This document shows, one piece after another, positions 811 through 26,911 of a stretch of 64,000 bases of DNA. Position 1 is the first letter of the stretch. Each line of letters begins with the position of its first letter. Below the pieces are notes generated by a model. It did not search any database, was not told where the DNA came from, and saw only the letters and a list, made by a program, of their open reading frames with translations. The position numbers and the translations under genes are program-made. The stretch covers positions 1-64,000 of IMG/VR virus record IMGVR_UViG_3300005253_000193, one strand, 5' to 3'. The DNA comes from a virus.

Positions 811-832
811 TGAAACTTCCGGGGTTAGTATA
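811..832. repeat. 22-nt motif copy, identical to 21468-21489
   Basis: TGAAACTTCC followed by GGGGTTAGTATA matches base for base the copy at 21468-21489, 20 kb away. It covers the stop codon of the 825-1127 gene and is followed by a short hairpin (ATCCCAG/CTGGGAT). Related variants lie between the rightward genes at 19.8-23.1 kb. Confidence 0.6.
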
Positions 833-1127
833 TCCCAGGTACTTCTGGGATTTCTGGCAGAGTTGAAAGAATTCCCCAACCACCAACGGGACCAAGAAAT
901 TTATTTCCGTCGAATTCGACCAGGTAGGGAGGTAGGGTGTGCATCCACCAGCGGTAGAAGTTATTCCTCTCCTTCCTTCCCCTCCATTCGTGGTAGTGGC
1001 AGGGGGACACGTTAGGCTGTTCAGGAGTGTTGTGCTCACTTCCGGGTTCATAGAGTTCAAACCCGTTGTAACCACCCTTTTTCCTTTGTTCCATCACAGC
1101 ACCAACCTCAAAGACACGGACGGTCAT
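825..1127 (-). CDS. Hypothetical protein, Trp/His-rich
   Basis: 100 residues beginning MTVRVFEVGAV. AGGAGAAAAC precedes the ATG with normal spacing. Aromatic- and His-rich middle (CHYHEWRG, NFYRWWMH) and a Pro/Gly-rich tail. No family recognised and no membrane segment. Its stop codon lies inside the conserved 22-nt motif, so the C-terminus and that DNA element evolve together. Confidence 0.65.
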   Translation of the reverse strand: MTVRVFEVGAVMEQRKKGGYNGFELYEPGSEHNTPEQPNVSPCHYHEWRGRKERNNFYRWWMHTLPPYLVEFDGNKFLGPVGGWGILSTLPEIPEVPGIY

Positions 1128-1177
1128 GTTTTCTCCTCGGGTAGTCCTGAATGGGGTGAGTCCCTTTCCCGTGCATG

Positions 1178-2141: not shown

Positions 2142-2193
2142 TGTCTCCTCCTTTGCTAGTATGTACTAAAAGAATGAAGTCGCTTTCCAACTT

Positions 2194-2599
2194 TGGGTTT
2201 CTGAATGTCGTTGGCTCGCTAGTCTCTCTCGGTTTTCTTAGAGTGGATGGCGCACTCTCCGTTCTTGGATTTCTATCTACAGTTGGCTCACTTTGGATGT
2301 GTGGTTTCCTACAGAATGTTGGCTCGCTTCGTCACATTGGATTTCCACTCCGTATTGGCTCGCTTCCTAGGGATGGTTTCCAAAACCAGTGTGGCTCACT
2401 TCCTTAACATGGTGGACTAGCGTTCTGTGGCTCGCTTGTGGCCATTGGATTTCTAAGACCAGGCTGGCTCGCTATGTTTCATTGGTTTTCTGAAGGTTTC
2501 CGGCTCGCTGTAGGGAGGTGGTTTTCTAAAGAGCAGCGGCTCACTTAGGATTTGTGGTTTTCTGCGATGTATTGGCTCGCTCGTACTTTCTGGGTTGCT
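2194..2599. repeat. 18-nt-period box array 1 (23 boxes)
   Basis: Alternating 9-nt boxes TGGCTCGCT (A) and TGGATTTCT (B), each followed by a 9-nt variable spacer. There are 23 boxes in 406 nt, and the phase is kept except for one extra base near 2470. The minus-strand end is followed by GCGACTTCATTC and TTTTAGT, resembling the ends of arrays 2 and 4. No protein frame is kept across it. Confidence 0.85.
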
Positions 2600-2651
2600 T
2601 GGAGGAGGGGCTATGCCTTTAAAATCATCACCTCCTAGCTTGAGTAGAAAA

Positions 2652-3828: not shown

Positions 3829-3862
3829 GGTCTCCTCCTGTTGCTATCCATAGATGGATAAA

Positions 3863-3910
3863 AGCCGAGGCTAAAAAATTGTGGACTTCTTTGATCCAAT
3901 GGCCCCGGCT
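3863..3910 (-). repeat. Single-copy intergenic hairpin (box type)
   Basis: Minus strand: AGCCGGGGC-CA, 9 nt, AGAAGTCCA, about 8 nt, GCCTCGGCT, then TTTTATCC. The stem differs from the other copies but pairs. Confidence 0.7.
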
Positions 3911-3920
3911 AATTGTGTTG

Positions 3921-5111
3921 TCACGAAATGTCGAGTAGGTCCCCAAAGGGGGGAAGGTGCTCCCTTTTTGAGGTAGAAGCCCACATCACCGGATACTCCG
4001 GCTCCTGTGGGAAGGAGTTGCAGTACATGTCCGTCATGTAGATGAAACACGCCGGAATGATACCGTTGTCCTCAACCCACTTGAACGGAGGTTTGAAGTC
4101 CGTACCACCCCCACCCTTGGCGTGAAGCCTGATGGGAAGGTCGGTCTTGTCGAACTCCTCAGTACCAGCCACCTTGGCATCGCAGTAGACGACGTAGACC
4201 TTTTCGATGTCAATGGTGGATAGGATTTCAGACAGCTCCGTGGCAAATCTGGTCAGCTCGACCTGGGAAATGCTCCCGGATGTGTCAACGGCAATCACGA
4301 TGCAGCCGATTTCCTGGCTGTGAAGGCTGGGGAGGTAGATTCCCCGACCGAGGTGTCGACGGTTTGGCTTTAGCCAGGAGTAGTCGTTCCTGGCTGAGTG
4401 CTCCACAAACTGACGTAGGCGGTCCACCCAATTGACCTTGGGATGGAGCAACTCACCAACAAACCTTTCCAGATCAGCCGGAAATTGTCCTTGGGACTTC
4501 GCGACAGCCGCCGCCTGTGCCACAAGTATCTTGACGTCGGCCATGGCTTTCGACTCGGCGGCAGAAACGGAGGGTGATCCCCCGTTGTTCCTTTTTCCTT
4601 TCTTGTTGTTGCCGTTTCTGCCAGCACCCCGCGATGGATGATCCTTCAGACCTCCACAACAAGTCTTTTGTTTGCTCTCCTTTATTTTCTTTTTCAACTT
4701 GTTGTAGATTTCATCTGCCGACATGCCCTTGAATTGCTCATCCAACAACACATCATCCGCAAGACTGAAGCCGGAACTTTCGAGGATCTGATTGATGGCG
4801 AAGTCCCCGGCTATGTTCCATAACAAGGGGTCACGGTTCTTGCGACGTACCGGATGGGCCATTGCAACGTGCATGACTTCATGGGCTACGCTGAACTCGA
4901 CTTCCTTGTCGCTTTCTGCAATGATGACATCGGGCTCGTATCCGAGCATTTCACCATTGGTCCAGTAAGCACCGCCCACTCTTTTCACGCAACCAACATC
5001 CTCAACCAATCTCATCCTCAAGGCGATAGTTCCGAAGAAGGCGTGGTTGAGGATCAACGAGGACCTGGCTCGAGTGAGCTTGTATCTGGCTTCCTGATTT
5101 ATTTCGTTCAT
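3921..5111 (-). CDS. VWA-domain metallopeptidase-like protein (DUF2201/CobT-like)
   Basis: 396 residues. The N-terminal third contains a zincin-like motif HEVMHVAMAH (about residue 78); the middle is Lys/Gly-rich and disordered; the C-terminal third is a von Willebrand A-like domain with a MIDAS start DTSGSISQVEL and the C-terminal ALIGN FIYMTDMYCN. This is the DUF2201-type architecture that partners MoxR/CobS-like AAA ATPases, and such an ATPase sits at 10097-11113. Together they probably form a metal-ion- or complex-remodelling chaperone; the target is unknown. Confidence 0.75.
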   Translation of the reverse strand: MNEINQEARYKLTRARSSLILNHAFFGTIALRMRLVEDVGCVKRVGGAYWTNGEMLGYEPDVIIAESDKEVEFSVAHEVMHVAMAHPVRRKNRDPLLWNIAGDFAINQILESSGFSLADDVLLDEQFKGMSADEIYNKLKKKIKESKQKTCCGGLKDHPSRGAGRNGNNKKGKRNNGGSPSVSAAESKAMADVKILVAQAAAVAKSQGQFPADLERFVGELLHPKVNWVDRLRQFVEHSARNDYSWLKPNRRHLGRGIYLPSLHSQEIGCIVIAVDTSGSISQVELTRFATELSEILSTIDIEKVYVVYCDAKVAGTEEFDKTDLPIRLHAKGGGGTDFKPPFKWVEDNGIIPACFIYMTDMYCNSFPQEPEYPVMWASTSKREHLPPFGDLLDIS

Positions 5112-5156
5112 TGTCTCCTCCTGTTGCTTTCGTGTGACAATTAAATTGCCAAATTT

Positions 5157-5203
5157 GGAAGGGGCTCATGCCGAATGGTTTGCTCCCTCCATCTGGCCCC
5201 TCC
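5157..5203 (-). repeat. Single-copy intergenic hairpin (box type)
   Basis: Minus strand: GGGAGGGGC-CA, 9 nt, GAGCAAACCA box variant, 8 nt, GCCCCTTCC. Lies between the 5214 gene and the leader of the VWA gene. Confidence 0.7.
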
Positions 5204-5213
5204 CATAATGAGT

Positions 5214-5696: not shown

Positions 5697-5733
5697 GATC
5701 TCCTCCTGTTGCTGTCCTATTAAATGGACAAAT

Positions 5734-5780
5734 GGAAGGGGCTTGCGTCTTTTGGGTTTCTGATATTCGCTGGCCCCTTC
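5734..5780 (-). repeat. Single-copy intergenic hairpin (box type)
   Basis: Minus strand: GAAGGGGC-CA, 9 nt, AGAAACCCA, 8 nt, GCCCCTTCC, then ATTTGTCC. A canonical copy. Confidence 0.75.
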
Positions 5781-5790
5781 TTAATTGAGT

Positions 5791-7699: not shown

Positions 7700-7760
7700 A
7701 TTTCTCCTCCTGCGTGTGGCAATGTGAAATCACCAAAAGAATAAAGACGCTCTGCTTTCT

Positions 7761-8038
7761 TGGGTTTCTTATCTGGAAGGGCTCGCTTTCTCTTTCATGG
7801 GTTTCTATACCGTATCGGCTCGCTAACTCGCATTGGATTTCTTCGAATTCTTGGCTCGCTTTACCACTGTGGTTTTCTACTGACGAGTGGCTCACTAGAC
7901 GCTCCGGGATTTCTTTATTATAATGGCTCGCTCACGTTTTTTGGATTTCTGCCAACTTTTGGCTCGCTTAATCGAGATGGGCTTCTAAAAATCGGGGGCT
8001 CGCTTCCATTTCGTGGTTTCCTATATCCTTTTGGCCCC
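7761..8038. repeat. 18-nt-period box array 2 (16 boxes)
   Basis: Alternating TGGGTTTCT- and GGCTCGCT-type boxes with 9-nt spacers (one spacer of 10). The right end is TGGCCCCTCC, identical in kind to the 5' stem half of the single hairpins, and the left flank on the minus strand is GCGTCTTTATTC-TTTTGGT. The frame change at the 10-nt spacer breaks any continuous coding. Confidence 0.85.
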
Positions 8039-8054
8039 TCCTGTACGTCAAATT

Positions 8055-8086
8055 AACAAAAGGCCGAGGCCATAACAGCCTCGACC
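8055..8086 (-). terminator. Terminator-like hairpin between arrays 2 and 3
   Basis: Minus strand: GGTCGAGGC, 6-nt loop, GGCCTCGGCC, then TTTTGTTAATTT. If it terminates, array 2 would be separated from the IS110-like gene's transcript. Confidence 0.6.
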
Positions 8087-8103
8087 AATTCGCTTTCCCT
8101 TTT

Positions 8104-8238
8104 TGGTTTTCTTTACTGCGTTGGCACGCTCCCTCTTTCCGGGTTTCTGGTTTGGAATGGCACGCTCCAAGTTTTTGGGTTCCTATGTCCGAAGGGCTCG
8201 CTCCCTCTTTTTGGATTGCTCGCCCCGAATGGCTAACC
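8104..8238. repeat. 18-nt-period box array 3 (8 boxes)
   Basis: TGGTTTTCT, TGGCACGCT, CGGGTTTCT and so on, eight boxes with constant 9-nt spacers. It runs into the stop codon of the 8233-9204 gene. Confidence 0.8.
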
Positions 8239-9204
8239 CTCGTGGACGATCCCGAGTTTGCCCTCGCTGTAAGGGGTCGATACCGGAAGTCCTTCCAGCT
8301 CACGCCAGGCCATATGGAGATCCATCAGGAACATCTTGATCATGTACCTTTTGGAGGCATTGTTGATGCGTCCGGGCGTCCATACCAAGGCGGCTTCCGT
8401 CTTGGAGATCTTGGAGAGTTTCTTGTACTCCTCGACCGTCACCTTCACCCTGTTGGGATCCGTTTCCAGCCGACGCTTGTAGGTTTCGTAGATACGACGG
8501 TAGCCGGTCACCTCGCCGATGACCTCCTTGGTCTCCTTGTCCTTCGGCGCTACCCCCGACTTAAGGAAGGAGCCGGCCAACACGCCGACCATTTTGGTCT
8601 TCAGGAAAGGATTGAACGTGATGCTATCACGCTCGCTTTCCTTTCCCTTCTTGTCGACGTAGGTACGCTTGACCTGATGCTCCTTGCGCCTGGAGCGTCC
8701 GACACCATCCGGTCCGACGTCCAGCCCAGCATACTTCCAAAAGCTGGAAGGATACTTGGCCTTGTGGATGTCAAACTCGGAGATGATGACACCGGCCATG
8801 GCCGCGCCGACTCCCTTCACGTCCTCCAGGAATTGGGTCCAGATGGGAAAGTCGAGCAGAACCGTCTCGAGTTGACGGAACATTTGTTCCTCGGCCTGCC
8901 TTAGTTCAATGTACCTGGAAACGAGACAGAGCTCCGCGTATGTGGAGATGACCTCGTCTCCCTTGAACTTTTTGGGCGTCGGGAAGGACACCATCCCATC
9001 GGTGATGAGCTTGTAGCGCTCGCGGAGCAGGTCCAGGGTTCTCTTGGCTTCCTTTTCCAGCTCCTTTTCGGAGGTGCTGGGTTCTTGTCCCAGCTTGGCG
9101 CGATAGTTCATCGCGATCCTGTTTCCGATCTGGATGCGGAGTTGTTGGATGTCATAGACACCCCGCACCATGGTCCGGAGATTCCGTTTGTGGTCTTCGC
9201 TCAT
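8233..9204 (-). CDS. IS110-like (Transposase_20-type) protein without catalytic domain
   Basis: 323 residues. Residues about 125-220 resemble the C-terminal helix-hairpin-helix domain of IS110/IS116 transposases (VKGVGAAMAGVIISEF, SSFWKYAGLDVG). The N-terminal DEDD/RuvC-like catalytic domain expected in IS110 (about 150 residues with early Asp) is replaced by an unrelated helical region. So this is probably a domesticated DNA- or RNA-binding protein rather than a transposase. It lies directly between box arrays 3 and 4, a striking neighbour given that IS110 enzymes work with flanking structured RNAs. Leader AGGAGGAGACC-ATG. Confidence 0.6.
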   Translation of the reverse strand: MSEDHKRNLRTMVRGVYDIQQLRIQIGNRIAMNYRAKLGQEPSTSEKELEKEAKRTLDLLRERYKLITDGMVSFPTPKKFKGDEVISTYAELCLVSRYIELRQAEEQMFRQLETVLLDFPIWTQFLEDVKGVGAAMAGVIISEFDIHKAKYPSSFWKYAGLDVGPDGVGRSRRKEHQVKRTYVDKKGKESERDSITFNPFLKTKMVGVLAGSFLKSGVAPKDKETKEVIGEVTGYRRIYETYKRRLETDPNRVKVTVEEYKKLSKISKTEAALVWTPGRINNASKRYMIKMFLMDLHMAWRELEGLPVSTPYSEGKLGIVHEG

Positions 9205-9272
9205 GGTCTCCTCCTGTTGCAGCTTGTGATGGTAACACTATATTACCAAAAGAATAAGGCGCTCGATCTGGA

Positions 9273-10019
9273 TGGGTTTCTATAGCGTAATGGCTCGCTC
9301 ATTCGACATGGACTTCTATCACGCATTGGCTCGCTCATGAGTATTGGGTTTCTGTAGCGTAATGGCACACTTCCCTGTAATGGGTTCCTGGCTAGGTTTG
9401 GTTCGCTTTTACCGTGTGGATTTCTCGCCATGATCGGCTCGCTCTGAAAAGTTGGATTTCTGCCAGATGATGGCTCGTTTGATCACGTTGGATTTCTCGA
9501 GGTTTCTGACTCGCTCCTGCGTCTTGGATTACTCGGTCTCGAAGGCTCGCTTTGCTCCAAAGGTTTTCTACGAGATGTTGACTTGCTCTCACGGGTTGGG
9601 CTTCTGCGCCGGATTGACTCGCTTGCTCGCCTTGGATTACTTGGTTCCAATGGCTCGCTCACATTAAATGGATTTCTAGCTGACTTTGGCTCGCTCGACG
9701 TGTATGGATTTCTGAAGGCTACTGGCCCACTTCCTTGCATCGGATTCCTGGTTGGAGTCGGTTCGCTTTTGTCGCGTGGTATACTATTTTGTGATGGCTC
9801 GTTTCCTCCGTATGGATTTCTTGGCTCGGTTGACACGCTTCCTTGTTTTGGATTTCTTTTGGCGAATGGCTCGCTTTTAGGTTTTGGATTTCTACCAGCC
9901 GGTGGCACGCTTACTTCTATTGGATTTCTAGTATCCAAGGACTCGCTTACGATCTTTGGGTTTCTGCTAGGTTTTGGCTCGCTTGAATCGTATGGGCTAC
10001 TGGATTCCCACGGCTCCTC
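9273..10019. repeat. 18-nt-period box array 4 (42 boxes)
   Basis: Forty-two 9-nt boxes alternate between TGGCTCGCT- and TGGATTTCT-like sequences, with 9-nt non-repeating spacers. There is not one indel across 747 nt (first box 9273, last 10011, exactly 41 periods). The minus-strand end is GCGCCTTATTC-TTTTGGT. Because 18 is a multiple of three, RNP/SEP-type and GFL/GSL-type pseudo-peptides appear in two frames; stops interrupt them. Confidence 0.9.
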
Positions 10020-10038
10020 CTATCATAAATAGTTAAAA

Positions 10039-10087
10039 TGTCGGGGCTTAGATGGAAGTGGATTGCTGGTATCCTCTGGCCCCGACA
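10039..10087 (-). repeat. Single-copy intergenic hairpin (box type)
   Basis: Minus strand: TGTCGGGGC-CA, 9 nt, AGCAATCCA, 9 nt, GCCCCGACA. The stem sequence differs from the GGAAGGGGC type but is fully paired, so it is a compensatory variant. Confidence 0.75.
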
Positions 10088-10096
10088 AATGAAGTT

Positions 10097-11113
10097 TTAG
10101 GCAAGGATGTCCGGGTGTTCGGAAATCCATTTGATGAAGGGGGTTGTTTCCTTCAGATCGCGATTGCGTTGTGTCGCCAGCTTGAGGGCAACCACGGCAT
10201 ATTCCTGCTCGGGGTACTGGTCACAGAACGTTATGAAGTTGTCCATGTTTTTCTCGGTTGCCCGCTCCGCCACGGCGGCGGCGAGAGCGTAGGACAGTGC
10301 CGGGTCATCCACAGGCATGTCGAAGTCACGCGGGTTCTTGATGACCAGGTCCGGATCGGGGAGGTTCCTGTAGATCTTGAGGAACCCTATCAACTCGCTG
10401 GCAAAACCCTCACCGGCCGCACCCTTGAAGACCTCGAACTCGATTTCGGGGTCAACAATGCCTGCCCTCATGAACTTGGCTATGTAGTGGACGGTGCGGG
10501 GCGAAGGCGTGTTTGTGATGTCCGAGGTCGGTTGGAAGTCATGGAGCAAGTTGGGTCGGAAGTTGATAAAACCGATCAACTCCGCAGGGATGTCATTTTG
10601 GCTGGCCCAAACGCACCAATCCTCATAATCACACTCGAGCTCGATGATGGTAGCAAACCTGGACTTGACAGGTTCCAGGATGCCAGCCACTCCGGCCCGA
10701 TCCGCCTTGCGATTTGTGGCCGCGATGAACGAGACCTTGTCCGAGATCTTTTTCTCATTGATCCGACGGGCGAGGATGAGCTGCATACATGCAGCCTGAA
10801 CGGCCGGTGGTGCCTGCCCGAGGTCATCCAAGAAATACACGGTACGCTTCTTAGCATCCATGATTCTCTTGAGATTTCCGAAGGGCAAGAATCTTGCCTC
10901 CGGACCTTTAGTGGTCTCGACCGCAGTCGGAAGACCTTTGTAGTCGACCGGGTCGTCCGTTACGGGATGTGAAACCACGGTGTCCGTCTTGCAGAACGCG
11001 CAAGCCTGATGCGTGATGTCAGTCTTTCCGAGTCCCGGTGCGCTCTTGATGAGGATCGGGAGTCCGGTGGGGATTGCATCACACAACAGCCTGAATAATT
11101 GACTGGGCTTCAT
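10097..11113 (-). CDS. MoxR/CobS-like AAA+ ATPase
   Basis: 338 residues. Walker A APGLGKT (about residue 27), Walker B VYFLDD (about 93), sensor-1-like FIAATNRK (about 130), then a helical lid. This is the MoxR/CobS-like branch that works with VWA-domain partners; the VWA protein at 3921-5111 is the obvious one. ATG 11113 follows GGAGGAGAAA and is preferred to 11125. Probably an ATP-driven remodelling chaperone in phage assembly or takeover (inference). Confidence 0.8.
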   Translation of the reverse strand: MKPSQLFRLLCDAIPTGLPILIKSAPGLGKTDITHQACAFCKTDTVVSHPVTDDPVDYKGLPTAVETTKGPEARFLPFGNLKRIMDAKKRTVYFLDDLGQAPPAVQAACMQLILARRINEKKISDKVSFIAATNRKADRAGVAGILEPVKSRFATIIELECDYEDWCVWASQNDIPAELIGFINFRPNLLHDFQPTSDITNTPSPRTVHYIAKFMRAGIVDPEIEFEVFKGAAGEGFASELIGFLKIYRNLPDPDLVIKNPRDFDMPVDDPALSYALAAAVAERATEKNMDNFITFCDQYPEQEYAVVALKLATQRNRDLKETTPFIKWISEHPDILA

Positions 11114-11159
11114 TTTCTCCTCCATTGCTTGGTATAGTGGTAGAGTGAAACTACCAAAG

Positions 11160-11786: not shown

Positions 11787-11823
11787 TTTCTCCTCCTGTT
11801 GCTGTCCTGTTAAATGGACAAAA

Positions 11824-11870
11824 GGAAGGGGCTTATTACTGATGGTTTACTGATTCGCCATGGCCCTTCC
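11824..11870 (-). repeat. Single-copy intergenic hairpin (box type)
   Basis: Minus strand: GGAAGGGCC-A, 9 nt, AGTAAACCA, 8 nt, GCCCCTTCC. One stem position is a mismatch relative to the other copies. Confidence 0.7.
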
Positions 11871-11876
11871 CTAATC

Positions 11877-12443: not shown

Positions 12444-12480
12444 AATCTCCTCCTGTTGCTATCCTGATAAATGGATAAAT

Positions 12481-12527
12481 GGAAGGACTTCAGATCATTG
12501 GGCTTCTATGTCCACTTGGTCCTTCCA
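12481..12527 (-). repeat. Single-copy intergenic hairpin (box type)
   Basis: Minus strand: GGAAGGACC-A, 9 nt, AGAAGCCCA, 8 nt, AGTCCTTCC. C-to-A/G-to-T changes on opposite arms keep the stem. Confidence 0.75.
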
Positions 12528-12529
12528 AA

Positions 12530-12718
12530 TCAGAACTTGTTTACGCTGTTAGCAAACCTGTCGGCGTCGCGCTTGCGAAGGAAAGAGGCGTACTGGATTA
12601 TGCGCCCAATTCTAACCCCTTCAAGATAATTCTCAAAGACTATGTCGTTGTTTTTTATCACGTAGCATCGGTTTTCTCCGACGCCTCTGGCCACGTAGTA
12701 GCGTTTCTTTCTACGCAT
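12530..12718 (-). CDS. Small-protein superfamily member ending VNKF
   Basis: 62 residues, basic start MRRKKRYYVARG, a beta-rich middle, then FLRKRDADRFANSVNKF, which matches the F-x4-(E/D)A-x2-F-x3-(Y/V)N-x-F C-terminus of the YNAF genes. Stand-alone gene with leader GGAGGAGATC-ATG. It shows that the terminal Phe is kept even where no gene overlap demands it. Confidence 0.6.
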   Translation of the reverse strand: MRRKKRYYVARGVGENRCYVIKNNDIVFENYLEGVRIGRIIQYASFLRKRDADRFANSVNKF

Positions 12719-12749
12719 GATCTCCTCCGCTGCTCTAAAAGTGCTAAAT

Positions 12750-12796
12750 GGAAGGGGCTAACAGGTTTTGGGCTGCTGACGGTCTATGGCCCCTCC
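12750..12796 (-). repeat. Single-copy intergenic hairpin (box type)
   Basis: Minus strand: GGGAGGGGC-CA, 9 nt, AGCAGCCCA, 8 nt, GCCCCTTCC. Confidence 0.7.
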
Positions 12797-12803
12797 CAAT
12801 CTC

Positions 12804-13001
12804 TCACTCAAGAATTTCCCGCGCTTGGGAAAGAGTATTGAAGTGCCTGACACAGCAGGCGTTACCAATCTTTTCAGGACTGACAACTTGGTATCTATCC
12901 ACCACCTCCTTGCCATCCTTGATGTGAAAAACTTTCTGCACGATGACAGGGACGGAGACGTTGTCGATCTTAGTGGTTCCCTTGTCCACATTGCGTAGCA
13001 T
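12804..13001 (-). CDS. Hypothetical small protein
   Basis: 65 residues from MLRNVDKGT with GGAGGAGATC upstream. Beta-rich, ending HFNTLSQAREILE, a weak echo of the F..xxEA.. helix in the superfamily but without the final Phe. Each gene around it sits alone with its own leader and hairpin. Function unknown. Confidence 0.55.
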   Translation of the reverse strand: MLRNVDKGTTKIDNVSVPVIVQKVFHIKDGKEVVDRYQVVSPEKIGNACCVRHFNTLSQAREILE

Positions 13002-13039
13002 GATCTCCTCCTTTGCCTTTGATTGATAAATGGACAAAT

Positions 13040-13087
13040 GGGAGGGACTAGTTGCCTATGGTTTTCTCGGGCCTATTGGTCCCTCCC
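13040..13087 (-). repeat. Single-copy intergenic hairpin (box type)
   Basis: Minus strand: GGGAGGGAC-CA, 9 nt, AGAAAACCA, 9 nt, GTCCCTCCC. Another compensatory stem variant. Confidence 0.75.
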
Positions 13088-13093
13088 AATCTC

Positions 13094-13411
13094 TCACCTC
13101 ATTTTGAATTGATCTAGCCGCCGCTGAAGGTACTTGCCGATGTCGTGATTGAAGGAAGCATTGGTTTTCCACTGCCATACGATGCATCTGGACACGTCCG
13201 AGTTAAAGGAAATCGGAGCAATTTCCACATTGAGTGGAATGTTTCCCTTGATATACTTGACCTTGCCAAAGGTATAGCCGATGCCACATGGACGCTCGAC
13301 CGTTAAAGGAACGCGCACGACGAATACGCGCCGCCCCTTGGACATGGAACCGCCAAAGGCTTGCATTGCGGCCTTTTGACTTCCCCATATATGACCAGAT
13401 TGTTCGGTCAT
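13094..13411 (-). CDS. Hypothetical protein
   Basis: 105 residues from MTEQSGHIW with GGAGGAGATC-ATG. Beta-rich, basic, ending YLQRRLDQFKMR. Its upstream leader carries the TGCCAA-TTTGGCA version of the small stem seen before most Shine-Dalgarno sites here. Not recognised. Confidence 0.55.
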   Translation of the reverse strand: MTEQSGHIWGSQKAAMQAFGGSMSKGRRVFVVRVPLTVERPCGIGYTFGKVKYIKGNIPLNVEIAPISFNSDVSRCIVWQWKTNASFNHDIGKYLQRRLDQFKMR

Positions 13412-13465
13412 GATCTCCTCCGTTGCTGCCAAATTGGCAAACAAGGCACAGGAAACATCCCATGC

Positions 13466-13684
13466 CTAAAATTTATCCATGTTTTCACAGAACGCATGGG
13501 CAAGCTCTTCGCTTTCAAACCATTGAATGTTTAACCAACCCTCCTTTCTGAGTCTGGCCTCATGACGTAGATGGTCTGATTTGAAGGTTCCATTCGCGTA
13601 GTTGGTCCTGGCCTTGCCCCACGAGTACCTACCCTTCAATACATCATCGGTCCTACAACCAGCCCAATACTGCTTCTCTGCCAT
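13466..13684 (-). CDS. Small-protein superfamily member ending MDKF
   Basis: 72 residues from MAEKQYWAG. Ends WFESEELAHAFCENMDKF, matching the F-x4-E-(A)-x2-F-x3-N-x-F signature. The start has AAAGGAAGAAACC rather than the usual GGAGGAG. The N-terminal YW resembles the W-V-V start of YNAF genes. Function unknown. Confidence 0.6.
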   Translation of the reverse strand: MAEKQYWAGCRTDDVLKGRYSWGKARTNYANGTFKSDHLRHEARLRKEGWLNIQWFESEELAHAFCENMDKF

Positions 13685-13703
13685 GGTTTCTTCCTTTGTC
13701 CAT

Positions 13704-13829
13704 TTACTTTGTTGGACGCTTGATAGTATGTCGAAGGGAACGACGTTCATGTCGATTTCGTGGCCTTCCCGTTATTGGCCCAACGATCCATTCCAGGAGC
13801 AACCATACCCATCGCCCCAATCGCTTCAT
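13704..13829 (-). CDS. 41-residue amphipathic/membrane peptide
   Basis: Short gene starting MKRLGRWVWLLLEWIVG with TGGAGGAGATT-ATG. A Trp-rich hydrophobic helix is followed by a very basic tail (RPRNRHERRSLRHTIKR). Looks like a membrane-active or membrane-anchored peptide; could be a small host-takeover factor. Longer in-frame starts exist but only this one has the regional leader. Confidence 0.5.
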   Translation of the reverse strand: MKRLGRWVWLLLEWIVGPITGRPRNRHERRSLRHTIKRPTK

Positions 13830-13860
13830 AATCTCCTCCATTGCTTTGTAATTGATTAAA

Positions 13861-13905
13861 GAGGGGGCTTTTGTCGATTGGGTTTCTAACCACGTATGGC
13901 CCCCT
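13861..13905 (-). repeat. Single-copy intergenic hairpin (box type)
   Basis: Minus strand: AGGGGGC-CA, 9 nt, AGAAACCCA, 8 nt, GCCCCCTC. Confidence 0.7.
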
Positions 13906-14161
13906 AATGGAAGGTTGGTTTGTCGAAGCACCCATCTTTATTAGGACAGATGCTGCATACTTTGGCCTTCAACAGGTCATTCACAAAGTTTGAGCTCTCT
14001 TCCATGGACCTGAAAGAGGCTAGTACAGTCCAACCCTCACGTTTTTCAACGCACGTCTTGGAGTCGCCATGAAGGAAAACGTCGGCGTTAACCACCTCGA
14101 TAGTGACGTCACCTTCTCCAGTGGTATCTGAACTTATGACCAGGTATTTGTTCTCGGGCAT
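13904..14161 (-). CDS. Superfamily-like protein with C-terminal Cys cluster
   Basis: 85 residues. The middle holds FRSMEESSNFVNDLL, the family-type helix, but instead of stopping after it the protein continues with CSICPNKDGCF, a small metal-binding-like knuckle. GGAGGAGATC precedes ATG 14161. It may be a family member extended by a zinc motif (inference). Confidence 0.55.
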   Translation of the reverse strand: MPENKYLVISSDTTGEGDVTIEVVNADVFLHGDSKTCVEKREGWTVLASFRSMEESSNFVNDLLKAKVCSICPNKDGCFDKPTFH

Positions 14162-14193
14162 GATCTCCTCCCATCGTCTTAAATTGTCAAAAT

Positions 14194-14239
14194 GGAGGGG
14201 CTTGGCAACTTGGGATTTCTACCGGTCTATGGCCCCTCC
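14194..14239 (-). repeat. Single-copy intergenic hairpin (box type)
   Basis: Minus strand: GGAGGGGC-CA, 9 nt, AGAAATCCC, 8 nt, GCCCCTCC. The B box is AGAAATCC, as in the arrays. Confidence 0.75.
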
Positions 14240-14242
14240 AAA

Positions 14243-14419
14243 TCAGAAGGCATCGTAAGCGGCCCCAAAGGCCATGGCTTTCTTTGCGGTGGCAAATTTC
14301 GCCAACACTTTGTAAGGACCTTTAAGTCCCTCTTTGGTTTGTAGCTGAGACTTAGTTGTTATTGAACAGAATTGGCGTTGTGCCCATTGCACAACCCACC
14401 ATTTTCCTGACGTTGACAT
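14243..14419 (-). CDS. 58-residue superfamily member ending YDAF
   Basis: Starts MSTSGKWWVVQWAQ after TAGGAGGACGAA and ends KFATAKKAMAFGAAYDAF. Both hallmarks of the YNAF family are present: the W-V-V start and the F-x4-A-x2-F-x2-(A)Y-x-A-F end. It is free-standing, with no overlapping neighbour. It lies immediately downstream (leftward) of the ncRNA-like stretch. Confidence 0.65.
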   Translation of the reverse strand: MSTSGKWWVVQWAQRQFCSITTKSQLQTKEGLKGPYKVLAKFATAKKAMAFGAAYDAF

Positions 14420-14439
14420 TTCGTCCTCCTACAAAAGTG

Positions 14440-15262
14440 ATTAAAGAGAGGGGAGGACAACGGACCGTGAAATGGCCCGCATAGATATCCTCCCCTCCCC
14501 AGCAATAGGAGGAGGAGACTCACCCCATTCAGCACTACCCAATGTCCGCCGATCCAGCACCGTCCTTCTCGCACCGTTTGACAACGTATTACATAGTAGC
14601 GTGCGTGATGATGCAATCAAACATCACCGTATTGTTTTTCCTTGGTAGGGGCCTTACCCACATGCTGAAGAAAGCACCAGCTTACGTGATACTCATAATC
14701 AGCAACAGCCTACAGCATTACGTCGTGAAAGTACAAGAAGTGATAAAGCGCATTAGAAGCGCAAGGCACCACGGTCCCGCCCACTAGGGGGCAGCATCTT
14801 ACTACGGACATCCTCTTATGCTTATCCGACTAAAGAACGTCGGCCCACCCGTACCTTTTACAGCCAGAGATGGGGGGCAGTGGGACCGGACTCATCCGGG
14901 TCTCTCATCCACCGTGCGATCATCATTAGGGGACCAAACGGTCCAGCCATCCTCAGCACCCGGTCCATCGTTCCCTATACAGTAGCAAAGGGGATGATGA
15001 GACCAACTGCCTAGCCAGGGTAGCCAGGGCGTCGGTTCCCTTCGATCCGTTTTACCACTCAGCGGGGCGGGAATTTTTAGTACCTTCTTTCGCTGCCCCG
15101 GTGGCCTCCGGTTTTTGGGGAGTTCCGTCTTAGGTCTCCCGAGCTGCTAGTTCTTGACGAACCAGCCCTACCCAAACACACACATTTCTAGGTAGTATGC
15201 AATTATGGCACATGGTATACATCCTTACAACAGGATATATATATCATATACATCGGTGTTAA
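14440..15262 (-). ncRNA. Candidate large structured ncRNA (about 820 nt)
   Basis: A gene-free stretch in a region where genes are otherwise packed. The minus strand has no credible frame but many strong local stems: CCGG-rich arms near 15090-15120, CGGA-TGAG-TCCG near 14895, GGACC/GGTCC pairs near 14930-14950. Its 3' end is a long stem, AGGGGAGGA to TCCTCCCCT (14450-14505), with a GGGCCA loop motif. Size and setting resemble the giant phage RNAs GOLLD and ROOL, but I cannot test this. Orientation is inferred from the flanking leftward genes. Confidence 0.5.
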
Positions 15263-15269
15263 TGAAAGG

Positions 15270-15461
15270 TTAACCAACTGTTGGGATGTTGTAGTCCCAC
15301 CAATCAGAAAGCTTCCTAAAGGTGCTTTTCCTCTTGTGCCTGTCGGAGTGATCACGAAGTGCTTCTCCGATCAGCCTTGCCTCTTTGAGGTCCAGAAACA
15401 AAACCACTTGACCCGGCTTGGCCTCACGAGTCTCATCCTCCATTACGATAGCATATCTCAT
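15270..15461 (-). CDS. Hypothetical small protein
   Basis: 63 residues, MRYAIVMEDETR start, charged helical middle (LDLKEARLIGEALRDH). GGATAGGAT upstream is a modest Shine-Dalgarno. It lies between the YNAF chain and the ncRNA candidate and has neither family hallmark. Function unknown. Confidence 0.5.
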   Translation of the reverse strand: MRYAIVMEDETREAKPGQVVLFLDLKEARLIGEALRDHSDRHKRKSTFRKLSDWWDYNIPTVG

Positions 15462-15496
15462 ATCCTATCCTTTCCTAGATGGCTGATGTCTCCTAT

Positions 15497-15703
15497 CTAA
15501 AACGCATTGTACAATCTCAGGAAGTCCGCAGCGGCCTTATGGTTGTCAAAGATCTTGATTATTGTGCAGCCCCCAAACTCCTTTTCGTATTCCTCAAGCC
15601 TGCCCTCTCTCACTATGTCTAACTGTACTTCCAGCCGTATGAAGTGCAGGGGTTCCCAAAGCTTCACCACATACCAGTCATCTGTATCTTCAGAAGGCGT
15701 CAT
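15497..15703 (-). CDS. YNAF-family protein 15 (last, not overlapping)
   Basis: 68 residues. N-terminus DDWYVVKLWEP replaces the usual WVVxxPxPGxVW; ends IFDNHKAAADFLRLYNAF. It is separated from copy 14 by 66 nt, so the overlap chain is broken here. The ATG in the expected overlap position has become ATA. Confidence 0.7.
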   Translation of the reverse strand: MTPSEDTDDWYVVKLWEPLHFIRLEVQLDIVREGRLEEYEKEFGGCTIIKIFDNHKAAADFLRLYNAF

Positions 15704-15769
15704 GCAGTCTCACAAAACGTACAGCGTCATCCATTTCAGACATCACAAGCACCCATGATCAATCAACTC

Positions 15770-16015
15770 CTAGAAAATATTGTAGCACTTCTGAAAGTGT
15801 ATTGCCTCCTCTCTGGTATTGAACCCGGCAATGGTCACATAAGTCTCTAGAGGATGGTGACACAGATATTTAGAAGACAGTTCGCTTCTACGCTCGTTTG
15901 TTACAATAGCTTTTCTAGTCCCTCTATAGGCACCCAAATTCCACAATGTTCCACCCACAGGAATAACAACTTGCCAGTATTTGTTCAACAGTTTTGGTCT
16001 GCGTCTAGAAATCAT
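15770..16015 (-). CDS. YNAF-family protein 14
   Basis: 81 residues, the longest copy. Starts MISRRRPK and has YWQVVIPVGGTLWN, TRKAIVTN, then FNTREEAIHFQKCYNIF. Its start lies in the YNDF codons of copy 13, so the one-base change that made Ala into Asp there also made Pro into Ile here. The overlap is 11 nt. Confidence 0.72.
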   Translation of the reverse strand: MISRRRPKLLNKYWQVVIPVGGTLWNLGAYRGTRKAIVTNERRSELSSKYLCHHPLETYVTIAGFNTREEAIHFQKCYNIF

Positions 16016-16226
16016 TATACACCTTCACAAAATTGCTGGCCGCGCGGAGGTCATCAAATTCCGCTATGGTCCTGGTTTGTGCCTTCCAAAATTTGTTCCC
16101 ATGCAAGACGGAGACGGGATCAAGATACACGGCCCTTCTATGAGTGTCCTGATGACTTCCGAGATTAGTCTCACTCCAGAGCTTTCCGTCCTCCTTTGGT
16201 ATGACTACATTGTATCTAGAAGGCAT
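16005..16226 (-). CDS. YNAF-family protein 13 (ends YNDF)
   Basis: 73 residues starting MPSRYNVVIPKEDGKLW. Retains HRRAV and a FDDLRAASNFVKVYNDF end. Start overlaps copy 12 by 11 nt. Confidence 0.72.
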   Translation of the reverse strand: MPSRYNVVIPKEDGKLWSETNLGSHQDTHRRAVYLDPVSVLHGNKFWKAQTRTIAEFDDLRAASNFVKVYNDF

Positions 16227-16425
16227 TGTACAGCTCACAATATTTTACAGCTTCCAAGGTCTGACCTTCCTCAAAACGAGCTATTACCACCGCCCCTCTA
16301 TAAGGTTCCACGTATCTTACTTCCCCAACCCATTTGTACGACATGTAGATCCTTGCTTGCATCCCGTCTCCAGCGAGAATGCAAAGGCCGACCGTTCGTT
16401 TCTTTTTTCTACGTCTAAAATGCAT
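16216..16425 (-). CDS. YNAF-family protein 12 (divergent, basic start)
   Basis: 69 residues starting MHFRRRKKKR. The W-V-V/PG motif is lost, but YRGAVVIARFEEGQTLEAV and ELYNAF remain. The overlap bases are ATGCATTTTAG, giving MHF and AF-stop in the two frames. Confidence 0.68.
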   Translation of the reverse strand: MHFRRRKKKRTVGLCILAGDGMQARIYMSYKWVGEVRYVEPYRGAVVIARFEEGQTLEAVKYCELYNAF

Positions 16426-16648
16426 TGTACATATCCAAGAATTGGTGCGCTTCCGCATGTGATGTAAATTCCTTGATCAACGTATAGGAATCCATACTTC
16501 TCCCGGAAAACTTCCCAAAGTCGATGTCCTCCCACTCTTTCATTGATGGATGAATGAAGGCTCCGTCAAGGTCAAGGCGACGAACCACAAAATAGCGGAC
16601 ATAGATTCCTTCGCTAACCATCAATGACTCTATTGCCCTAGAAGGCAT
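16415..16648 (-). CDS. YNAF-family protein 11 (divergent)
   Basis: 77 residues starting MPSRAIESLMV. YFVVRRLDLDG is a trace of the N-terminal strand; the end is FTSHAEAHQFLDMYNAF. The longer upstream frame to 16741 lies inside copy 10 and is not used. 11-nt overlap. Confidence 0.68.
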   Translation of the reverse strand: MPSRAIESLMVSEGIYVRYFVVRRLDLDGAFIHPSMKEWEDIDFGKFSGRSMDSYTLIKEFTSHAEAHQFLDMYNAF

Positions 16649-16859
16649 TGTATAAGTCCCTAAAGGCGGCGGACTCCTGTAAATCTTTAAACACACCAAG
16701 GATAGTGAGAATGCTTCCTTCACTAGTGACACTGGACGCATCCCTAAATCTTATGGAGACGGCTTTTCTAGGGTGCCGAGAAGGAGACACCGTCTCATTC
16801 CATACCATCCCAGGAGGTGGAAGCACAACAACCCATTGACTAGTAAAATCAAAAGGCAT
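16638..16859 (-). CDS. YNAF-family protein 10
   Basis: 73 residues, MPFDFTSQWVVVLPPPGMVW start, HPRKAVSIRF centre, LGVFKDLQESAAFRDLYNAF end: a complete typical member. 11-nt overlaps on both sides. Confidence 0.78.
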   Translation of the reverse strand: MPFDFTSQWVVVLPPPGMVWNETVSPSRHPRKAVSIRFRDASSVTSEGSILTILGVFKDLQESAAFRDLYNAF

Positions 16860-17040
16860 TGTACAAATCCCTTAATTGATCTGCTTTCTGTCTCTCCGTA
16901 AACTTACCAAGGACCTCATAGATTTCGTGAAGTACTCTGTCTGCCTCCCTACTAGAGTGTTGTGACGTGAAAGCCAGTGGTCTTATAGAAGACTTGCTGA
17001 TCAATACATAGTAAAGTCCCTTTCCTTTTTTAGAAGGCAT
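16849..17040 (-). CDS. YNAF-family protein 9 (short, divergent)
   Basis: 63 residues, MPSKKGKGLYYVLISKS start; the PG-VW motif is missing. Ends LGKFTERQKADQLRDLYNAF. 11-nt overlaps on both sides. Confidence 0.7.
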   Translation of the reverse strand: MPSKKGKGLYYVLISKSSIRPLAFTSQHSSREADRVLHEIYEVLGKFTERQKADQLRDLYNAF

Positions 17041-17257
17041 TGTACATCCTTTTAAATTGCTGTGCATCTTTCAGCTCATAGAAGCTGGCAATGATCTTAT
17101 AGTGGGATGGAAGTTCGTCTATTTTTTTCCTTATGATGGCTCTGTTAGTTTCCATAGCGGGAACTGTTTTCCATTCCTTTTTAGGAACAAGAACCATGTA
17201 TTCCCCCACACCCATTTTCTGATAGAAATCCAACATGGACACGTTTTCAGAAGGCAT
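17030..17257 (-). CDS. YNAF-family protein 8 (divergent)
   Basis: 75 residues, MPSENVSMLDF start, then YMVLVPKKEWKTV and NRAIIRKK in place of the typical motifs; ends FYELKDAQQFKRMYNAF. 11-nt overlaps on both sides. Confidence 0.7.
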   Translation of the reverse strand: MPSENVSMLDFYQKMGVGEYMVLVPKKEWKTVPAMETNRAIIRKKIDELPSHYKIIASFYELKDAQQFKRMYNAF

Positions 17258-17468
17258 TGTACATGTTCCTAAATAATGTGGCTTCATTCAAATTGTCAAA
17301 CACACCAAGGAAGCAAACAATAGAACCAACATAGGTATAATGATGAATGCTTGCCCAATTAGTGATGATCGCTCTCCGTGTTCCTATAAGGAATGACAAA
17401 CCCCCTTCCCACACCCTTCCAGGGCCAGGTATCATAATAATAAATTGATCATTGAGTTCAGAAGGCAT
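17247..17468 (-). CDS. YNAF-family protein 7
   Basis: 73 residues, MPSELNDQFIIMIPGPGRVW start, GTRRAIITNW centre, LGVFDNLNEATLFRNMYNAF end. Typical. 11-nt overlaps on both sides. Confidence 0.76.
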   Translation of the reverse strand: MPSELNDQFIIMIPGPGRVWEGGLSFLIGTRRAIITNWASIHHYTYVGSIVCFLGVFDNLNEATLFRNMYNAF

Positions 17469-17667
17469 TGTAAGCATCCTTGAGCCTTACAGCTTCCCTC
17501 AATTTATCAAACTTACCAAGCAGGATGCAATCCTCAAAGCCCTCTGCGACCTGCTCAACCACGGTAGCTCTTCTAGTACCCTGACAACCCATCCATTGTT
17601 GATGCCGTTGATACCACACTTCGCCTGGAGGGGGTAAGACCACGGTCCATCTTAAATCAGAAAGCAT
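17458..17667 (-). CDS. YNAF-family protein 6
   Basis: 69 residues, MLSDLRWTVVLPPPGEVW start, GTRRATVV centre, LGKFDKLREAVRLKDAYNAF end. The overlap has CTT for CCT, so the start reads MLS while YNAF is unchanged. Confidence 0.76.
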   Translation of the reverse strand: MLSDLRWTVVLPPPGEVWYQRHQQWMGCQGTRRATVVEQVAEGFEDCILLGKFDKLREAVRLKDAYNAF

Positions 17668-17863
17668 TGTACGCATCCCTAAACTTCAGCGCCTTTTTGT
17701 GATCATCAAACTTTCCAAGGACAATACATCGTTTAATTAGGGATTTGATTGAAGTTGAAGTCAGAGCTGCTCTTCTGGTGCCATTATGCATCCATTTTCT
17801 ACTCCATACCTCACCAGGAGGTGGAAGCATAACAACCCAAGGACCGCGAAATTTAGAAGGCAT
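17657..17863 (-). CDS. YNAF-family protein 5
   Basis: 68 residues, MPSKFRGPWVVMLPPPGEVW start, GTRRAALTS centre, LGKFDDHKKALKFRDAYNAF end. Close relative of copy 6, suggesting recent tandem duplication. 11-nt overlaps on both sides. Confidence 0.78.
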   Translation of the reverse strand: MPSKFRGPWVVMLPPPGEVWSRKWMHNGTRRAALTSTSIKSLIKRCIVLGKFDDHKKALKFRDAYNAF

Positions 17864-18092
17864 TGTAGTTGTTCCTGAGGACTAATGCTTCTCCCAACTC
17901 AGCAAAAGCGCCAAGAATGGAAACAATGCCCATACCCGGATAGACTTCAGAATTTAAACTGGCGTAGCGAAAAGAAGCAGAACATCTACAGCTATGTTTG
18001 ACCCATGGCCCGATTCTGTTCCATACCTTTCCAGGCCGAGGAATGACAACCACCCACAAATCATTTACCTCGGCATAATAATCAGAACGCAT
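17853..18092 (-). CDS. YNAF-family protein 4
   Basis: 79 residues, MRSDYYAEVNDLWVVVIPRP start, then GKVWN, a Cys/Arg centre CRCSASFRYA, and LGAFAELGEALVLRNNYNAF end. 11-nt overlaps on both sides. Confidence 0.76.
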   Translation of the reverse strand: MRSDYYAEVNDLWVVVIPRPGKVWNRIGPWVKHSCRCSASFRYASLNSEVYPGMGIVSILGAFAELGEALVLRNNYNAF

Positions 18093-18309
18093 TGTAGCCG
18101 TTCCTAAAGGTCGCACCATCCACATGATCATCAAACACACCAAGGATGGAAACGATCCCTACATCCTTATTGGCAAAATACGATATGTTGTTATAGAGCA
18201 GGAGAACCGCCATCCTTTTACCCTGCTTTGATCCCATATGTTCCCCCCACGTCAATCCAGGCCGAGGAACAATGACGACCCATTGATCCCCTAGTCCATC
18301 AAAAGGCAT
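18082..18309 (-). CDS. YNAF-family protein 3
   Basis: 75 residues, MPFDGLGDQWVVIVPRPG start, KRMAVLLLYN centre, LGVFDDHVDGATFRNGYNAF end. Its stop TGA overlaps as TTTTGA, giving MPF in the next frame. 11-nt overlaps on both sides. Confidence 0.76.
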   Translation of the reverse strand: MPFDGLGDQWVVIVPRPGLTWGEHMGSKQGKRMAVLLLYNNISYFANKDVGIVSILGVFDDHVDGATFRNGYNAF

Positions 18310-18541
18310 TGTATAGATTCCGAAATATTACTGCCTCCGCAGAAGTGTTGAACACGCCGATGAAGGAAACCAATCCCACTTCGATATTAACCAGTGGGAG
18401 GATGCCACCATAACGACATATAGCAGCTTGTCTGATTTCAGAAGAGCTGGGGGGAAAGAGGGAGAAATGGATGGAATCCCCCCACACAACTCCAGGTCGA
18501 GGAAGCATCACAACCCAGGAGTCGTTGTTGTTAGAAGGCAT
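18299..18541 (-). CDS. YNAF-family protein 2
   Basis: 80 residues, MPSNNNDSWVVMLPRPGVVW start, IRQAAICRYGG centre, IGVFNTSAEAVIFRNLYNAF end. The central block closely matches copy 1 (ICRYxGxL, VSFIGVF). 11-nt overlaps on both sides. Confidence 0.77.
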   Translation of the reverse strand: MPSNNNDSWVVMLPRPGVVWGDSIHFSLFPPSSSEIRQAAICRYGGILPLVNIEVGLVSFIGVFNTSAEAVIFRNLYNAF

Positions 18542-18773
18542 TGTACAAATCCTGGAATATCCTTGCCTCCGTGGAAGTGTCAAACACGCCGATGAAGGAG
18601 ACTATCCCCAGTTCAAGATTGACGCGAAGGAGACTGCCAGCGTAACGACATATGGCAGCCCTTCTGGTATTGTGGAAGAAAGGGAAAGGTGAGGCAGGAT
18701 CCATTGAACTATGTTTCCACACCTTACCAGGAGCAGGAATGATAACAACCCAAGTTTTATCAAGAGAGACCAT
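18531..18773 (-). CDS. YNAF-family protein 1 (first of chain)
   Basis: 80 residues, MVSLDKTWVVIIPAPGKVW start; the domain layout is defined here. A W-V-V-x-x-P-x-P-G-x-V-W strand/turn is followed by a T-R-R-A-A strand, a variable loop, G-x-V-S-x-x-G-V-F strand, and a helix xxEAxxFxxLYNAF at the very C-terminus. The ATG at 18773 has no upstream family member. Leftward transcription presumably starts in the control region to the right. No known family is recognised; the small alpha/beta fold is inferred from pattern only. Confidence 0.74.
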   Translation of the reverse strand: MVSLDKTWVVIIPAPGKVWKHSSMDPASPFPFFHNTRRAAICRYAGSLLRVNLELGIVSFIGVFDTSTEARIFQDLYNAF

Positions 18774-19307
18774 TGAACCCCCGAAATCAAACAAACTACC
18801 AGATAAAGCCAAATCACCAGAGAAGTCAAGTAGTCCGTTTACTCCGTGCCACAACCAAAAGACAGCTATGTTAATGAGTCATTAACCATGTTTAAGAGAT
18901 AGAAGGATACGTCCAAGGATACATCAAAAACTTCATATGATGTAAAGACTCATAGAAAGGGTGATAGACCTGAGACGTAAAGCTCAGGGAAAAGCGGAGA
19001 CCAGCAGGACAGGGGGAGAGACCAGCCTGAAAGGGAAACCCGAAAGGCGTGAAAAGGGTTGTCCAGGAAGCCACAGGAAGCCAGAAAAGGGTTGTCCGGG
19101 AAGCCAGAAAAGGCGGCGTTCTTCCTCTTCCTCCCTGGCTTCTGGATGTTCTTCATCCTCATCTTTGTCATCATCGTCATCGTCTTTTTCCAAGGGTTTC
19201 CAAGGGTTTTGTGGTGATGTATGTTATTTGGTGGGGGATGATGAGGATGAGGAGGATTGATTGTATCAATCATCATCTTCATCTTCCTCGGGCCTACAGG
19301 ATTGACG

Positions 19308-26832: not shown

Positions 26833-26911
26833 TGGTTGGCCCGGTGGGATTCGAACCCACGACCCCAAGATTAAAAGTCTCGTGCTCTTTATCCAACTGA
26901 GCTACGGGCCA
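26833..26911 (-). tRNA. tRNA-Lys (TTT)
   Basis: Complete cloverleaf on the minus strand: acceptor TGGCCCG/CGGGCCA, anticodon loop CTTTTAA, T-arm GTGGG-TTCGAAT-CCCAC and encoded CCA. Confidence 0.92.

What the first reader, a model, noticed from the sequence alone, without database searches (positions are those of the whole stretch)
14440..15262. Gene-free 820-nt stretch with ncRNA-like structure
In a densely packed region this block has no credible gene, yet has many strong local stems and a GC-rich closing stem at 14450-14505. Phages carry giant RNAs (GOLLD, ROOL) of this size with unknown roles. It lies between a family gene and the YNAF chain, and one 14243 family gene follows at once.
Basis: partly seen in the sequence, partly recalled or inferred. 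Interest (0 to 1): 0.75.

Follow-up and report, generated by a model that had tools for sequence, protein, structure and literature searches.

The report
Gene-free phage stretch, hairpin-locked gene start
A bacterial virus carries an 850-base stretch with no recognisable gene; one end folds into a strong hairpin over the start of the next gene and also holds a 24-base piece complementary to the start region of another of its genes, so it may be a regulatory RNA, but nothing proves that the whole stretch is a functional RNA.

Summary
The gap is real: 850 nt (14420-15269) without a gene-like frame. It matches no Rfam family, so a GOLLD, ROOL, OLE or HEARO RNA is not supported, and no relative of its DNA was found, so covariation could not be tested. 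The minus strand folds better than its shuffles (z about -5; plus -1.6), but other windows of this phage do so too, and the excess sits mainly in the 3' hairpin. Two parts are concrete: a hairpin (14424-14513) pairs with the Shine-Dalgarno of the next gene, and the adjacent 24 nt (14517-14540) are complementary at 23 of 24 positions to the leader of gene 825-1127, directly upstream of its Shine-Dalgarno. Best reading: an untranslated leader RNA with a cis lock and a possible trans-antisense site; low-to-moderate confidence. Something more striking lies beside it: a TIGR-TasA system plus about ten solitary stem-closed tigRNA-like units, nine just upstream of gene starts.

The parts
14420..15269 (-). 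gene-free block, proposed untranslated minus-strand leader RNA
   Evidence: no gene-like ORF; minus-strand fold z -5.2 for 14440-15262
14424..14513 (-). 3' hairpin: 9-bp outer helix (14513-14505 with 14432-14424), 15-bp helix (14500-14486 with 14459-14445), 7-bp apical helix; the outer helix pairs with the Shine-Dalgarno of gene 14243-14419
   Evidence: helices; SD 98% paired, rank 7 of 140 leaders, leader MFE rank 2 of 140
14517..14540 (-). 24-nt segment complementary (16 bp + one mismatch + 7 bp) to the leader of gene 825-1127
1139..1162 (-). proposed trans-antisense target, directly upstream of SD GAGGAG (1138-1133) and ATG (1127)
825..1127 (-). proposed target gene, 100 aa, no Pfam match
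14243..14419 (-). downstream gene (58 aa, ends YDAF) whose SD is in the hairpin
15270..15461 (-). upstream neighbour gene, 63 aa, gene-like codon use, no family
14541..15262 (-). rest of the block; minus-strand fold better than its shuffles, no defined structure
   Evidence: z -4.4, 0 of 60 shuffles; 2nd of 182 by energy excess, not by z
15202..15230 (-). only promoter-like match in 13800-16200 (TTGTAA-17-CATAAT with TG); no better than chance
   Evidence: 1 found, 2.8 expected in shuffles

Best explanation
The block is an untranslated stretch of a minus-strand phage transcript, the long leader of the small gene 14243-14419. Its 3' end is a strong hairpin that holds that gene's Shine-Dalgarno closed (cis control). 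The adjacent 24 nt can pair with the leader of gene 825-1127 just upstream of its Shine-Dalgarno, so the same RNA, whole or processed, may block ribosome entry there (trans-antisense control). Shown: the gap, the predicted hairpin and SD pairing, the 23-of-24 complementarity and its position. Inferred: transcription, processing, and both regulatory effects. Unknown: whether the 700-nt body does anything.
For: Hairpin and SD pairing. Complementarity: E 7.6e-5 for the block against the record, 23 of 24 against a best of 21 of 24 in 39 dinucleotide shuffles of the block; in a record-wide self-comparison (E 0.018) it is the only opposite-strand pair apart from two self-palindromes in the 80 rows printed of 117. 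Best duplex of the block's minus RNA among 139 gene leaders is this one, -64.0 kcal/mol. The segment is somewhat open: mean unpaired probability 0.44 against 0.35 overall, rank 147 of 826 windows. Strand asymmetry of folding favours the strand of the neighbouring genes.
Against: No transcript data. No promoter or terminator support. No relatives, so no conservation. Duplex energy is only slightly better than the best in shuffled blocks (-51.4 to -61.9 in 6 shuffles). Excess folding is common in this phage. The 24-mer could instead be a shared DNA element; the plus ORF 14542-14787 starts right behind it, though without a near Shine-Dalgarno (read by eye).
Confidence: 0.38

Rival explanations
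1. Mostly idle sequence: a long spacer or decayed region whose only working part is the 3' hairpin before gene 14243-14419; the 24-nt match is a chance or historical leftover.
For: Middle of the block has no local folding excess; fold excess is common elsewhere; no promoter or terminator support; no relatives.
Against: Phage genomes rarely keep 850 idle bases (general knowledge); minus z -4.4 without the hairpin; 23 of 24 match not reached in 39 shuffles.
Confidence: 0.35
2. A DNA-level element: the 24-mer pair is an inverted repeat for recombination or a shared operator, or the block is a replication or packaging site.
For: The two 24-mers are an inverted repeat 13.4 kb apart; the plus ORF 14542-14787 starts right after one copy.
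Against: Of the 30 protein entries (29 distinct, not all genes) scanned with PHROGs none was named a site-specific recombinase; the TasA-like protein matched transposase families. No iteron-like repeats in the block; the cumulative GC-skew minimum is near 19 kb; terminase is at 100.9 kb.
Confidence: 0.1
3. One or more orphan protein genes, for example plus ORF 14542-14787 (81 aa).
For: Open frame of 81 aa; weak Pfam hit to Memo, E 0.0049, 16.5 bits against a cut-off of 27.
Against: Codon score within the spurious range (20% score as high); no near Shine-Dalgarno (by eye); lies against the direction of the neighbours; no phage relative by tblastn.
Confidence: 0.08
4. A giant ornate phage RNA of the GOLLD or ROOL kind.
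For: Size (many GOLLD members exceed 800 nt, passage read) and phage origin.
Against: No Rfam match; no tRNA island next to it; no tested covariation.
Confidence: 0.02

Closest known systems
c4 antisense RNA of phages P1 and P7
   Same: A phage RNA with a segment complementary to the ribosome-binding region of another phage mRNA (passage of PMC12197685).
   Different: The proposed target lies 13.4 kb away in another gene cluster; the block is several times longer than c4 (length of c4 recalled); no Rfam match; no known antirepressor.
Leader hairpins that sequester the Shine-Dalgarno (translation locks, thermometers; class recalled)
   Same: A helix pairs with the Shine-Dalgarno of the gene that follows.
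   Different: No Rfam riboswitch or thermometer family matched; no ligand or trigger known.
GOLLD and ROOL RNAs
   Same: Length near 800 nt, phage genome.
   Different: No model match, no tRNA island, no covariation evidence.

Membership tests
GOLLD, ROOL, OLE (profiles in Rfam according to PMC12286853, passage) and HEARO (presence in Rfam recalled) | match to the family covariance model | tested here: not met
   no such family at gathering score in the window or up to E 10 in 14240-15500
GOLLD, ROOL | often near tRNA islands | tested here: not met
   nearest tRNA gene at 26833
GOLLD, ROOL | conserved, covarying multi-helix structure | not testable with these tools
   no relative found
phage antisense RNA (c4 type) | long complementarity to the ribosome-binding region of a phage mRNA | tested here: met
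   23 of 24, ending at the base before SD GAGGAG of gene 825-1127
phage antisense RNA (c4 type) | antisense segment exposed (loop) | tested here: inconclusive
   mean unpaired probability 0.44, rank 147 of 826
phage antisense RNA (c4 type) | RNA is made and represses its target | not testable with these tools
   no transcriptome, host unknown
c4 (Rfam family, presence recalled) | match to the family covariance model | tested here: not met
TIGR unit (tigRNA), considered because units lie just downstream | two spacers of about 9 nt between edge and loop repeats, or in a stem-closed unit | tested here: not met
   53 unit-pattern matches in the record, none in 14420-15300; hairpin 14424-14513 lacks the loop repeat (by eye)

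The most novel reading that the evidence does not exclude
The block is a new class of large phage RNA, about 800 nt, that joins a folded body, a trans-antisense arm against one phage gene and a cis lock on another, coupling two small-gene clusters of the phage.
Probability: 0.08. Interest if true: 0.7.

Novelty: new member of a known kind. Interest (0 to 1): 0.35.

Why it matters
If the reading is right, it gives a testable RNA-RNA pair in an uncultured phage: one untranslated RNA that closes one gene and may silence another. If it is wrong, the block is an ordinary long spacer with a hairpin. Either way it is not evidence for a GOLLD-like giant RNA. The neighbouring TIGR-TasA system with solitary, stem-closed units in gene leaders matters more: it hints that a nuclease-free Tas protein or its guide RNAs may act on the phage's own mRNAs.

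Tried and rejected
Rfam families: only tRNAs. Relatives of the block by DNA: phages, distant mode, and window 10000-34000, near mode, nothing; the 24-mer in viral contigs and a 22-base core of it in genome contigs, nothing; 28 related records searched whole: best E 0.014, short matches, taken as chance. Relatives by neighbours: AAA ATPase, TasA and YNAF queries gave no confirmed viral locus, YNAF none in genome contigs; the DUF2201 protein gave 5 loci at 34-36% and the capsid 2 at 64%, none with the block. Anti-repeat (tracr-like) of the TIGR repeats in the block: none within 1 mismatch (the part printed before it timed out). tigRNA targets in the phage record: 8 loose hits against 2, 8, 5 and 7 in controls, none in the block, so no signal. 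Hammerhead or group I core: looked for by eye and through Rfam only, nothing.

Full report
Setting. The window is the first 64,000 bases of a 105,963-base IMG/VR virus record. The proteins tested point to a tailed phage with its own replication genes: HK97-type capsid, terminase, portal, DNA polymerase, helicases, primase, topoisomerase. No near relative is in the phage collection for the block or for 10000-34000.

The gap. Minus-strand genes 15270-15461 and 14243-14419 leave 850 nt, 14420-15269, with no convincing gene. A codon score trained on the record's long ORFs puts the seven ORFs of the gap inside the spurious range (20-70% of 373 spurious ORFs score as high). The same score cannot separate some accepted short neighbours either (18% for 14243-14419 and 17657-17863), so it is weak. 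PHROGs and Pfam give nothing significant; tblastn of the longest plus ORF finds nothing.

Known RNA families. Rfam at gathering scores finds only tRNAs in the window and in the rest of the record. Up to E 10, 14240-15500 gives nine weak hits to unrelated families, all far below their gathering scores. The GOLLD, ROOL, OLE or HEARO reading therefore fails the model test.

Folding. The minus strand of 14440-15262 folds to -325.8 kcal/mol against a shuffle mean of -283.4 (z -5.2, 0 of 60 as low); the plus strand has z -1.6 (4 of 60). Without the hairpin, 14541-15262 minus still has z -4.4 (0 of 60). Two results temper this. In 200-nt windows the excess is at the hairpin end (14301-14600) and mildly at 15051-15400, with none in the middle. 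And across the first 91 windows of 720 nt on both strands (182 of 292 planned jobs) the mean z is already -1.2 (plus) and -1.5 (minus); the block is second by energy excess (-36.6 kcal/mol) but at least 13 of the 25 windows listed have a lower z than its -3.8 there. So the block is structured, but not uniquely so for this phage.

The hairpin. On the minus strand 14513-14505 pairs with 14432-14424 (9 bp), 14500-14486 with 14459-14445 (15 bp) and 14480-14474 with 14466-14460 (7 bp). The outer helix takes in the Shine-Dalgarno of gene 14243-14419: paired probability 0.98, rank 7 of 140 leaders, and the leader's MFE is second of 140. A simple terminator scan finds no terminator here. A translation lock is the plain reading.

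The antisense segment. A search of the block against its own record returned one other place: 14517-14540 matches 1162-1139 on the opposite strand at 23 of 24 bases, E 7.6e-5. The minus RNA of the block is thus complementary to the minus RNA at 1162-1139, which ends at the base before the GAGGAG Shine-Dalgarno of gene 825-1127. In the record-wide self-comparison the pair has E 0.018 and is the only opposite-strand pair, apart from two self-palindromes, in the 80 rows printed of 117. Thirty-nine dinucleotide shuffles of the block reach at most 21 of 24. Among 139 leaders this one gives the best duplex, -64.0 kcal/mol; but six shuffled blocks reach -51.4 to -61.9 as their best, so energy alone is a weak argument. 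The segment is moderately open.

Search for relatives. Neighbour proteins gave at best distant loci or none. A scan for the phage's TIGR repeat found 102 stretches in other viral contigs; none of the 107 loci L008-L114 has a blastn match to the block (E 1 or better), and 28 whole records searched gave only short chance-level matches. So conservation is untested, which limits everything above.

Reading. I judge a leader RNA with a cis lock and a possible trans-antisense arm (0.38) about as likely as a mostly idle spacer with a working hairpin (0.35). DNA-level roles, an orphan gene or a giant ornate RNA are less likely.

Beside the block. Minus gene 8233-9204 matches Transposase_20 over residues 124-180 and phage transposase families, with no nuclease domain reported, and is flanked by arrays of 36-nt units with two 9-nt spacers between repeats like AGCGAGCCA and AGAAATCCA. 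That is the anatomy of a TIGR-TasA system as described by Faure et al. (PMC12045711; sections on dual-repeat arrays, targeting, stem-loop arrays, genomic vicinity and discussion read). tblastn finds a TasA relative in 63 of the 107 loci searched (L008-L114, five of them not from the repeat scan), up to 53% identity. In addition, single units closed by a stem (GGAGGGG-CCA-N9-AGNANNCCA-N9-AG-CCCCTCC type) lie in gene leaders: 11 pass the rule, one of them (8192-8241) probably just an array edge and one (10038-10088) before an array; the other nine stand 28-43 nt before the GGAGGAG of a gene start. In nine aligned units (two of 11 left out: 8192-8241, and 10038-10088 because it is one base longer) the stem pairs in 96.8% of cells, with both-side changes in 4 of 7 pairs; 0 of 500 shuffles reach the paired percentage or the covariation score and 3 of 500 the number of such pairs. 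Among 102 repeat-bearing loci four passed the stem rule with one unit each, three of them plainly ordinary dual-repeat edges and one (L022) doubtful. The paper places stem-loop arrays with Tas clades other than the dual-repeat clade; here both forms share one record. In the titles and abstract openings listed (20 and 5 papers) I saw no report of this; of those papers I read only named sections of Faure et al.

Noticed in passing
window 2180-2620, 7745-8245, 9257-10025 (arrays, minus strand) and 8233-9204 (minus): TIGR-TasA system: 36-nt dual-repeat arrays with 9-nt spacers around a Transposase_20/Nop-type protein with no nuclease domain reported; 53 unit-pattern matches in the record against 1-9 in 20 shuffles; same repeat in 102 stretches of other viral contigs, TasA relatives in 63 of 107 loci searched.
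   Followed up: partly
window minus strand 14192-14241, 13859-13908, 13039-13088, 12749-12798, 12479-12528, 11823-11872, 10038-10088, 5733-5782, 5156-5205, 3862-3911: Solitary stem-closed tigRNA-like units with a like loop repeat and 9-nt spacers; nine of these ten sit 28-43 nt before the Shine-Dalgarno of a gene, with compensatory changes in 4 of 7 stem pairs. Not clearly seen in 102 repeat-bearing loci of other phages, and one common stem form has no exact match in viral contigs (5 in this record). Possible autoregulation of phage mRNAs by TasA; deserves its own study.
   Followed up: partly
window 15497-18854, minus strand: Chain of about 15 small paralogous genes ending in YNAF or alike, plus divergent members at 12530-14419; no PHROGs or Pfam family above cut-off for the members tested, no relatives found.
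   Followed up: partly
window 61446-63986, running on to record position 64256, minus strand: SbcC/SMC-like ATPase frame whose upstream part reads like an intein or homing-endonuclease insert (by eye from the translation); an SbcD-like gene lies next to it.
   Followed up: no
record 67429-67906 and 87779-88277: Two further gaps of 478 and 499 nt between ORFs of at least 60 aa; at Rfam gathering scores only a tRNA at 88038-88109, inside the second gap.
   Followed up: no
window 3921-5111 and 10097-11125, minus strand: DUF2201 metallopeptidase/VWA protein and MoxR-like AAA ATPase, a pair also found together in four distant viral loci.
   Followed up: no
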